Positions 969-64,000 of a stretch of DNA of 64,000 bases are shown piece by piece. The stretch spans positions 11,086,485-11,150,484 of the forward strand of contig NC_134027.1 in NCBI RefSeq assembly GCF_964204645.1. The letters are read 5' to 3'. Numbering within the stretch: position 1 is the first letter of the stretch; every line of letters begins with the position of its first letter. A program made the translations under genes and the position numbers. Source of the stretch: Tubulanus polymorphus (lineage: Eukaryota; Nemertea; Palaeonemertea; Tubulaniformes; Tubulanidae). A model generated the notes under the pieces. The model was not told the origin of the DNA and searched no databases. It saw only the letters and a program-made list of their open reading frames with translations.

Positions 969-3900
969 GCGTGTTCTTGTTCTAATATGCCGAAATCTTT
1001 ACGCAATGTTTCGAGCGTTTCTTCTAATGCGATATGTTTTTTCTCTAAACTTTCGAAATCTCTTCGCGGTATGACATCGCCATAATTAGCAACCATTTCG
1101 TTCAATCGCCGGCTAGCGCTGGCTTCGTCTTCTCTAGCTTTTCTATAGAGAAAATAAAAACGAATCATTCCGCAATAAATTCAACTATTGCCGAAAAAGT
1201 GCTGAAACATAATGGCTGCAAGTTGGCGTTCTTGATTCTGGTCGGGTCAGTGTTTGGGCTGCAGATGTGTCAAAGGTATAGATACATGCATAATCCAAAT
1301 ATAAAGACAATCCATTGAAGCGTCTTCAAAACTTCCCAAAATAACTGGGTTCCATCAATAGACGGAAAACAACAAAAAGGGAACACAGCAGTTTTCCAAG
1401 GGCTTTAAAGGCATATTCTTCCAAGAAATAAAAGGATGCGAATTGTACCAGTCTGAAAATTTCATTCTCTCTTTTAGAAAGTCTTATTCGAAAACAGCTC
1501 TGCTGTTGTGAAATGAAAGTGGTGTTTTCTGTGACAATTCATCTGTTTAACAGCTAGATAAGGACTATACCTAGTTCTGGTTTTTCTAACTGCTCAATAA
1601 TGATTCAATCTCAAAAACCCAAATGTTCAATCTCCTGTCAACTTAAGTCCCACCAATTAATCCTTAAAAAAACCTTTTTGGAATATGGTTAACCCCCAGA
1701 AATTTTCTGGATCCATCCTTGGGATATTTTGCCTGACTTACTTCAAGGCTATTCTCATTGTAACTGGGTCGATCTCCTCTTCTTCCAGTTCTTTCATTCC
1801 TTGTTTTGCCATTGCGATATCTTCCTGTTGATATCGTAAATCATTGATATCCGATACCAGTAACTTTCGGGCGTCGCATTCGTCGCGGTACTTCAGATAT
1901 TCGGCTGCCAGTTCTTCTTGTAATTTAGCCACTTGCGATTGGAGATCTTTCTGCTCATTCTTCATGTCAGAAATTCGCTTGAATAAAGTTGAATTCTCTT
2001 TTTTCAAGTCAACCATGTCTGAATCAAAGCAAATAAAGTATTAGATTTGAGCAATCAAAACAAATGATGTATTGACAATTCAAAATTGAAGAAACTTTCT
2101 GAAAAAGCCTCCGCTCATTGGGCAGAGCTCTACAAAGCCCCTCTATCTAAGGCTTAAAACATCTCTGATCCTATCGGGCATGTCAGCTAAATGGGCTTGA
2201 CTTACAGCATACACTAGAAGTGTTCGTTTGACTGACTGACGCTTCCAATTCATATACTAACCAAAAATGAATCCTATCAAAATTAAGGATTAGTTTTATG
2301 GTAGAACCAAGTACTCATATGCTTTAAACTATTATTGGCCGTGGATGGCACCATATTGACCAAGCCAGACCTGGTTCATAACTGAACTGAGTGATTTTCA
2401 AATCAACTGGTAGAACTAGTCTCGGCCACCCAAACGAACATGGTGGAATTCCGAATCTAAGATAGTTATTTGGATTACAGATTATCTACATAAAGCAGAC
2501 CAACTGTATTTCAATATCATTATGATAAACCTTGTTTTTCTTGATCTCTCAGCGCCATAATTTTCTGATCACATTGCTCCGATACGGTGACCAACATTTG
2601 CTGGAATCATAAAGAATCACATATTGAGAAACGACGGGCTTTATAAATTAAGAAACCTTATCAAAATAACACAACATGGAATTTACCCGAAGTGGTTCCA
2701 TCTGTCGTAACTGCTCTCTTTGATGAGCTACGAACATTTCATATTCATTTTTAATCGCCGATAGAATTGGTTTGTACGTCTTAAAGTCTTCAATCAGGTA
2801 TTCAAATACTTCTCGGTGGGCCTGAAAAATTTAAAACCCTTTGAGTGCAGGTTGCTAAAGCTGAGTACCGTAAATCTTAGAAGAAAGAATGCCAGAAGAT
2901 CATTTTCTTGTAGGGCTATCTAATCCATCCAAACATTAACACCAAACAATGATGTTGCTCCCGCAAAAGAATAATTCCGGGAAAGGTGATTCGGAATAGT
3001 TAATTCCGACATTAGTTTCCAGACAAGTGACTGTCCAAATTCTATTGGCCATTTTCAAAAACAGTTTTGAAAATGGCCAATAGAATTTGGTCGAAATGTC
3101 AAATTCTCACTTAGGTTTTTCACTGTGGGTTTTTACTTCATTTCGACATTGTCTCAGTTTAGATAATCAATTCCAGAATCATTTGTGACTTTAAACATGC
3201 TCAAACATTTTGCAGGTTTTGAACTAAATGCGATTGATAAGTGATTGAACTTACCTGTAATCTAAGTTCACTGGGGCTCACATCAACAACACCTAGTGAA
3301 CGGATTTCCTTTTTCAGAAATGATTCCAACTGTTCAAGGAATCGCGGTTTCGGAATTATTTGCGGTTTTCCCAAATCTTCGTCATCGATAACAACCAGAT
3401 CTTTGTTCTTAGTCAAACCAACGGATGTGCCTGATCCGATCTGGCCGGTTGCATGTGCCGGCCAAGTTTCTAAACTGCCTGCATTTGTGTCGACATAAGG
3501 CTGAAAAGATTGAAATGAAAAGCATAAGACTGTGGACACACCATGTTAATCGCTAACTCTTATCAAATTACTCAGTGTCCTCCATATGCCGGAACTTTAA
3601 AGGGCCTATTTTAATTGTTAAGTGTATGACATCGCAGCTGCTGAAGTAGCAAGGCTTTCAATGTCACAGGCAGCTTATGGAATAAATGCAACAAATGAAA
3701 ATTATAACTAATGATCAACCCATGATAATTATCAATCACACCAGATACATTTTCTTTAGAATCCGAAATTGACTAAAGATATAAGATTTGGTGCAACTAT
3801 CGCAAGTTTTAGCGCTGAACCTCATACATCAACTGTAGAATTTTGATGAGGATAGAATTTCTCCAAGGAGTCCTTAACCCTTTCAGCAATTAATACGCAA

Positions 3901-62800: not shown

Positions 62801-64000
62801 AATATATGCTTGGGGAATATTCTTGAAAATGGGTTTTCTTGCACTACGAGAAAATATGAATACCAAAGACTTGTCCGAAAACTCTAAAATTAATTCGAGT
62901 ATATTCATAAACGCTAGTATTTTGACATTTTGTTTTATTTTATTTGCAGCAATTATACCAGACGTTAACGGATTATGATATACGATTTTATCTATTTGAG
63001 TTACTGAAGGTAGGAAGACAAGAATTGAATCGATACAGTTGATCCAGTCGATTCCCTGTTTCATCGAAATCTGGGATGGTTGAGAGATTAGAAGGGATCT
63101 TAAACATATCGGATGGGTTTTTCGATCGGTCAATATTTATGCAATTGTCAGCCGTCTTAGTCTCATCAGTCCTCTGTACATGGAGAAAGTTGTTTGAAGA
63201 TAAAATCAACAGGTTTTAACTTAAAATCTTGATACATTTTCATGGGACACATCTGCTTTCACATAGAATTGTGATTACCAGGTTTTGTCCCTGGACGCCT
63301 AGCTATGTTAACGACTATCGTTTTTCACAGGCTTTAGATTATTGCCACAGTATGGGTATAATGCATCGCGATGTGAAGCCTCACAATGTAATGATTGATC
63401 ATGAAAATAAAAAGGTAATTGATATACGGATTTCACCCGGGGGATTTCTATCAATTTGGACCCTTCGTTGACAGTTGAGTAAATTTTTTTGCGTGTTATT
63501 TTCAGCTACGGTTGATCGATTGGGGTTTAGCAGAGTTTTATCATCCAGGGCAGGAATACAATGTCAGGGTAGCGTCGCGATACTTTAAGGGTCCAGAATT
63601 GTTGCTCGATTATCAGGTAAATATGAAAACTATTAAGTAATTTTTAGCATTGCGATACTCATACGGTACCTCGGGATTGGGCCGGTTTATTAAAACGAAA
63701 TTAAAGAAGCAAAGTTATAGCAGTAGAAACAAAACTCTTAAACCCTTTCAGGGTAGTCTAGCGTGTTGTAGATGTACTGGGGTGCTATTTCAAACGTAAA
63801 TTCAAGGATTATGTGGCCTGTGCGAAACAGAATTATGACTTGTTAGAAGACAACCCTCTCATTACCCATGAACTCGCAGTTCATCAATCAGTTATCATAA
63901 GGACTAAACTTGAACGGATATAGTCTATGTGTACTTTATTTTGATATTTTTATGTTTTCGTTTTTCAGATGTATGATTATTCACTGGATATGTGGAGTTT
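59812..64000 (+). CDS. CSNK2A: Casein kinase 2 catalytic alpha subunit, partial (3' end outside window)
   Basis: Exons 59812-59906, 61580-61691, 62459-62560, 62668-62718, 62950-63009, 63331-63414, 63506-63616 and 63969-64000+ join in phase to about 215 residues, then reach the window edge. The N terminus ([18 protein letters not shown]) is the CK2-specific segment. The glycine loop is [12 protein letters not shown]. The basic cluster [14 protein letters not shown] is a CK2 hallmark that recognises acidic substrates and heparin. The catalytic loop is HRDVKPHN (Asp154), and the metal-binding motif is DWG (173-175) in place of the usual DFG, diagnostic for CK2. The activation segment [20 protein letters not shown] is essentially invariant. 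It is a constitutive Ser/Thr kinase forming a tetramer with CK2 beta. Vertebrates have two paralogues, A1 and A2; I cannot say which is closer. Confidence 0.97.
60395..60527. repeat. Two adjacent perfect palindromes in CSNK2A intron 1
   Basis: The first (60395-60458) has 32-bp arms centred on CACTATAGTG with no loop; its right end AATGAGGGTTATGGTT is then directly repeated. The second (60476-60527) has 26-bp arms centred on GTAGCTAC, starting GGTAAACTGGTGACTAGCTG. Both are loop-free and could extrude cruciforms. Confidence 0.9.

What the first reader, a model, noticed from the sequence alone, without database searches (positions are those of the whole stretch)
969..64000. Ancestral gene neighbourhood linking human 16q and 6p23 gene pairs
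The window has TSNAXIP1 head-to-head with RANBP9/10, MCUR1 next along, and CCDC113 head-to-head with CSNK2A. As I recall the human map, RANBP10 and TSNAXIP1 are head-to-head neighbours on 16q22.1, CSNK2A2 and CCDC113 are head-to-head neighbours on 16q21, RANBP9 and MCUR1 are neighbours on 6p23, and LONP2 is on 16q12. One invertebrate segment joining all of these suggests the pre-duplication arrangement, later split between vertebrate paralogous regions. Gene identities are seen in sequence; the human positions are from memory.
Basis: partly seen in the sequence, partly recalled or inferred. Interest (0 to 1): 0.8.

Follow-up and report, generated by a model that had tools for sequence, protein, structure and literature searches.

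The report
Conserved gene neighbourhood matching human 16q/6p
A stretch of an unnamed invertebrate genome keeps together genes that in humans lie on chromosome arms 16q and 6p, a real remnant of an old shared chromosome, but of a kind already well known, and its gene order is not shown to be the ancestral one.

Summary
The window carries TSNAXIP1 head-to-head with a RANBP9/10 gene, then UBE2C (not named in the finding), MCUR1/CCDC90, an intronless F-box/LRR gene, LONP2 (C-terminus SKL), and CCDC113 head-to-head with CK2-alpha (ATGs 1,285 bp apart). Just left of the window lies alanine aminotransferase (human GPT2, 16q11.2). Two strict adjacencies shared with human are not expected by chance (p about 4e-5 even if order were random only within the chromosome). 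Chromosome-level linkage is supported: all six detected human 16q/6p marker families (CBFB, CNOT1, EDC4, COG4, SSR1, GFOD) lie on the window's contig, 10.4% of the genome (p about 1e-6). A seventh, NOL7, was not found. One GFOD gene lies there, while mammals have GFOD2 beside RANBP10 and GFOD1 near RANBP9.

Linkage before vertebrate genome duplication is therefore supported. The literal "pre-duplication arrangement" is not: UBE2C intervenes, and MCUR1 lies on the 3' side of RANBP here but, by recollection, on the 5' side of human RANBP9. No second invertebrate could be compared. Ancient microsynteny broken up after vertebrate duplication is documented; this is a new example.

The parts
1..3500 (-). 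TSNAXIP1, N-terminal exons (971-3500); gene continues left of the window to about -3891; first exon not placed
   Evidence: Pfam TSNAXIP1_N 6.6e-20; exon coordinates
7054..27467 (+). RANBP9/RANBP10 co-orthologue (SPRY, LisH, CTLH), head-to-head with TSNAXIP1
   Evidence: 485 bits to human RANBP9 and 472 to RANBP10
34202..37099 (-). UBE2C, at least four exons, lying between RANBP9/10 and MCUR1
   Evidence: about 202 bits to UBE2C, other E2s 116 or less
38485..40808 (+). MCUR1/CCDC90B co-orthologue; only CCDC90-like match found in the genome
43136..45082 (-). Intronless F-box/LRR gene, human orthologue not resolved
47983..54526 (+). LONP2, peroxisomal Lon protease, C-terminal SKL
   Evidence: the genome's other Lon gene is on C5
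56051..58526 (-). CCDC113
   Evidence: 234 bits to human CCDC113 against 34 for CCDC96; second family member on C4
58527..59811 (.). Divergent interval between the CCDC113 and CK2-alpha start codons; candidate shared promoter (inference)
   Evidence: 1,285 bp, GC 43%, CpG o/e 1.21 against 38% and 0.98 for the window
59812..64000 (+). CK2-alpha (CSNK2A), head-to-head with CCDC113; continues right of the window to about 67077
   Evidence: about 680 bits to human CK2-alpha; exons

Best explanation
The window is a surviving local cluster (microsynteny) inside an ancestral animal linkage group. In this invertebrate the group lies on contig C3. In vertebrates, whole-genome duplication copied it, and differential gene loss left TSNAXIP1 with RANBP10 and CSNK2A2 with CCDC113 on 16q, and MCUR1 with RANBP9 on 6p. 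The two head-to-head pairs are most likely kept by shared divergent promoters. The looser linkages (MCUR1, LONP2, GPT) are most likely kept by slow shuffling within the chromosome. Shown here: gene identities, orientation, adjacency, one MCUR1/CCDC90 and one GFOD match, and contig-level enrichment. Inferred: duplication history, promoter sharing, ancestral state.
For: Gene identities. RANBP nearly equidistant from RANBP9 and RANBP10 (485 vs 472 bits) and one MCUR1/CCDC90 match, as expected before duplication. Six of six detected 16q/6p markers on C3: CBFB, CNOT1, EDC4, COG4, SSR1, GFOD; chance 1.3e-6. Family members expected elsewhere are elsewhere: the other CCDC113/CCDC96 gene on C4, the other Lon gene on C5. 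Mammalian GFOD2-RANBP10 neighbours and Gfod1, Sirt5, Mcur1 in one mouse segment. GPT beside the window, and GPT2 near LONP2 on human 16q. Literature: chordate linkage groups with scrambled internal order, and vertebrates retaining few inherited microsyntenic blocks after duplication.
Against: No second invertebrate genome could be read, so conservation is shown only between this genome and mammals. UBE2C and the flanking TTC5-like and muskelin genes are not 16q/6p genes (muskelin 7q32.3, the others by recollection), and the F-box gene is unassigned. MCUR1 side and GFOD distance differ from mammals. NOL7, RANBP9's human neighbour, was not found (the search may miss it). No RFX X-box in either divergent interval. 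Human cytobands of CBFB, CNOT1, COG4 and SSR1 rest on memory.
Confidence: 0.82

Rival explanations
1. Macrosynteny plus two conserved divergent pairs only. The genes share a chromosome by common descent, the two head-to-head pairs are independently conserved, and their falling within 64 kb of each other, with MCUR1, LONP2 and GPT, is chance placement within C3 rather than one ancestral block.
For: If C3 genes map to human 16q at 20-30%, six of nine 16q families in a stretch has p of 0.003-0.025, not extreme. Order is largely scrambled within linkage groups. The pairs are about 10 Mb apart on human 16q, and GFOD is 1.2 Mb away here.
Against: RANBP-MCUR1 linkage recurs on human 6p23, and GPT and LONP2 are also fairly close in human, which pure scrambling would not favour.
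Confidence: 0.45
2. Functional clustering: the region is held together because its genes are co-regulated, for example in ciliated or sperm cells (TSNAXIP1, CCDC113), with ubiquitous partners.
For: Each divergent pair joins a ciliary or sperm-associated gene to a general regulator (established gene functions); interval composition fits a promoter.
Against: No X-box in either interval. The pairs are separated in human without evident harm. UBE2C, LONP2 and GPT have no ciliary role.
Confidence: 0.1
3. Chance or assembly artefact: unrelated genes happen to lie together, or the contig is misjoined.
For: Only one assembly was available; C3 ends were not shown to be telomeric.
Against: Shared adjacencies have p of 4e-5 or less, and markers spread over 1.5-27 Mb of C3 agree. 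No N in the 100 kb of flanks read.
Confidence: 0.02

Closest known systems
Chordate/bilaterian ancestral linkage groups (Deeply conserved synteny resolves early events in vertebrate evolution, PMC7269912)
   Same: Genes stay on one chromosome across animals while order is scrambled; vertebrate copies arise by whole-genome duplication
   Different: Here a short stretch also keeps strict adjacencies; which linkage group C3 carries was not determined
Metazoan microsyntenic blocks (PMC8851819)
   Same: Neighbouring orthologues with few intervening genes, collinearity not required; few such blocks were inherited by vertebrates after genome duplication
   Different: Block lists are in supplements that could not be read, so it is unknown whether this block is already catalogued
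Conserved divergent (head-to-head) gene pairs (PMC3815023)
   Same: TSNAXIP1/RANBP and CCDC113/CSNK2A are divergent pairs in this genome and, from memory, in human
   Different: Promoter sharing not shown; the TSNAXIP1/RANBP interval may reach 3.5 kb, and human CSNK2A2/CCDC113 are about 50 kb apart (memory)

Membership tests
Metazoan microsyntenic block | Three or more orthologues separated by at most five intervening genes in each of two species (definition) | tested here: inconclusive
   Met in the window. In human the families split into 16q22.1, 16q21, 16q12.1 and 6p23, so no single human block holds three of them
Metazoan microsyntenic block | Shared adjacency beyond chance | tested here: met
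   Two pair adjacencies shared with human; p 4e-5 or less
Ancestral linkage group member | Contig enriched for orthologues of one set of duplicated human segments | tested here: met
   6 of 6 detected markers on C3, 10.4% of the genome; NOL7 not found
Ancestral linkage group member | Same grouping in other invertebrate phyla | not testable with these tools
   No other animal genome is held
Conserved divergent gene pair | Head-to-head orientation with close transcription starts (about 1 kb) | tested here: inconclusive
   CCDC113/CK2-alpha ATGs are 1,285 bp apart; TSNAXIP1/RANBP up to 3.5 kb because the first TSNAXIP1 exon is unplaced; transcription starts unknown
Pre-duplication single-copy locus | One copy of each family that was duplicated in vertebrates | tested here: inconclusive
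   One CCDC90-like gene and one GFOD. Other CTLH matches are on C2 and were not assigned to a family member. CK2-alpha copy number not tested

The most novel reading that the evidence does not exclude
A block of roughly 80 kb (GPT, TSNAXIP1, RANBP9/10, MCUR1, LONP2, CCDC113, CSNK2A) existed as a unit before the vertebrate genome duplications and was divided between 16q and 6p by reciprocal gene loss, with the two head-to-head pairs held by shared promoters.
Probability: 0.25. Interest if true: 0.5.

Novelty: new member of a known kind. Interest (0 to 1): 0.35.

Why it matters
It ties human 16q and 6p23 segments to one invertebrate chromosome with gene-level detail and gives a clear example of how duplicate copies of a neighbourhood were divided by gene loss. 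The two divergent pairs, each joining a ciliary or sperm-associated gene to a ubiquitous regulator, are good candidates for testing whether shared promoters preserve gene adjacency over very long times.

Tried and rejected
RFX X-box motifs in the divergent intervals: none; the single hits were at 28,810 and inside a RANBP exon at 20,359. Species identification through COX1: no match in the assembly. NOL7 as a 6p23 marker: no match, and absence cannot be shown. TSNAXIP1 against solved structures: no match. CCDC113-bearing contigs in the viral collection: none. Literature search for the four pair genes in a synteny paper: none; RANBP9/10 with GFOD1/2: none. Bacterial promoter scan of the divergent interval: not informative for an animal genome. 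Chance clustering rejected. UBE2C as a processed retrocopy rejected: its coding sequence is split into at least four exons.

Full report
Setting. The window is contig C3:11,086,485-11,150,484 (C3 is 27.8 Mb) of a 267.8-Mb assembly in 77 contigs. Genes have many introns. No COX1 was found, so the phylum was not determined. I read 50 kb on each side.

Gene content, left to right. TSNAXIP1 (minus): its TSNAXIP1_N domain scores 6.6e-20, N-terminal exons lie at 3,500-971, and further exons continue left of the window to -3,891 (the C-terminal exons were assigned by resemblance to the human protein as I recall it). RANBP9/10 (plus, 7,054-27,467) has SPRY, LisH and CTLH domains and scores 485 bits against RANBP9 and 472 against RANBP10, as a co-orthologue would. 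UBE2C (minus, 37,099-34,202, at least four exons) scores about 202 bits to UBE2C and 116 or less to other E2s; the finding does not name it. MCUR1/CCDC90 (plus, 38,485-40,808) is the only CCDC90-like match in the genome. An intronless F-box/LRR gene follows (minus, 45,082-43,136). The Lon gene (plus, 47,983-54,526) ends in the peroxisomal signal SKL and the genome's other Lon gene is on C5, so this is LONP2. CCDC113 (minus, 58,526-56,051) matches CCDC113 at 234 bits and CCDC96 at 34; the other family member is on C4. CK2-alpha (plus, 59,812 to about 67,077) matches CK2-alpha at 680 bits and alpha' at 637. Exons in the queries were joined by hand, with a few junction residues inferred.

Flanks. 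An alanine aminotransferase gene lies at -13,476 to -9,380. Further left are a TPR gene resembling TTC5 and muskelin (Muskelin_N 1.4e-6). To the right are a GPCR and unassigned genes.

Human map. Papers give RANBP9 6p23 and RANBP10 16q22.1, RANBP9, SIRT5 and CCDC90A (MCUR1) beside one 6p23 SNP, and a CSNK2A2/CCDC113 locus at chr16:58.25 Mb. GPT2 and LONP2 are 1.36 Mb apart on 16q. Cattle and goat lists run GFOD2, RANBP10, TSNAXIP1, CENPT; a mouse chromosome 13 list runs Cd83, Rnf182, Mcur1, Sirt5, Gfod1, Tbc1d7. Strands and spacing in human are from memory: RANBP10 minus and TSNAXIP1 plus about 100 bp apart; CSNK2A2 minus and CCDC113 plus about 50 kb apart; RANBP9 and MCUR1 both minus.

More than chance. 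Two shared strict adjacencies among seven neighbour pairs have p about 4e-5 if only the order within a 1,500-gene chromosome is random, and 2e-7 genome-wide. Six of nine families from GPT to CSNK2A have a human member on 16q. Against a genome-wide rate of 2-5% this has p of about 1e-6 or less, but if C3 genes already map to 16q at 20-30% it is only 0.003-0.025 (rates are my rough assumptions). Tight clustering beyond the two pairs is therefore suggestive, not proven.

Chromosome-level test. I chose families from human 16q or 6p by recollection before seeing results: CBFB, CNOT1, EDC4, COG4 (16q), SSR1 and NOL7 (6p), GFOD (both). Six matched and all six lie on C3; NOL7 gave no match. C3 is 10.4% of the genome, so p is 1.3e-6, or 8e-6 counting NOL7 as lying elsewhere. 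The second CCDC113/CCDC96 gene and the second Lon gene, whose human counterparts are not on 16q or 6p (memory), fell on C4 and C5. GFOD gave one match, 1.2 Mb from the window; its two mammalian copies accompany RANBP10 and RANBP9. This fits 16q22.1 and 6p23 being duplicates of one ancestral region.

In mammals GFOD2 and TSNAXIP1 flank RANBP10 on opposite sides, and GFOD1 and MCUR1 lie on opposite sides of the RANBP9 position. Superimposing these puts TSNAXIP1 and MCUR1 on the same (5') side of the ancestral gene. Here they are on opposite sides, with UBE2C between RANBP and MCUR1 and GFOD far away. At least one local rearrangement separates the two, in one lineage or the other. The window documents ancestral linkage and two ancestral adjacencies, not the ancestral order. 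This step uses human strands from memory.

Mechanism. The CCDC113/CK2-alpha start codons are 1,285 bp apart, in sequence richer in GC (43%) and CpG (o/e 1.21) than the window (38%, 0.98). That fits a shared divergent promoter but does not show one. No RFX X-box was found in either interval. Retention of the looser linkages needs no function beyond slow shuffling.

Literature and novelty. Chordate linkage groups with scrambled order and the small number of microsyntenic blocks inherited by vertebrates after genome duplication are documented. No held paper was found that names this cluster, but block lists in supplements were not readable. I file it as a new example of a known kind, interest 0.35.

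Noticed in passing
left flank, window -46627 to -37948 (loci L010, L011): Muskelin (MKLN1) lies about 45 kb from RANBP9/10; both are subunits of the CTLH ubiquitin ligase complex. Probably coincidence, but worth checking in other genomes.
   Followed up: partly
left flank, window -13476 to -9380 (loci L007, L008): Alanine aminotransferase (GPT) gene; human GPT2 is 1.36 Mb from LONP2 on 16q, so it extends the 16q cluster beyond the window.
   Followed up: yes
window 43136-45082, minus: A 650-residue F-box/LRR protein without introns among intron-rich neighbours, possibly an old retrogene; best solved-structure matches FBXL2 and FBXL17.
   Followed up: partly
   Followed up: partly
window 45594-45797: Two perfect tandem copies of a 102-bp unit.
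   Followed up: no
window 32360-32460 and 32806-32906: Two copies (96% identical) of a 101-bp repeat whose reverse strand reads EPDLNQRPKDDSS..., probably a dispersed element.
   Followed up: no
right flank, window 92666-93697, minus: Single-exon rhodopsin-class GPCR.
   Followed up: no
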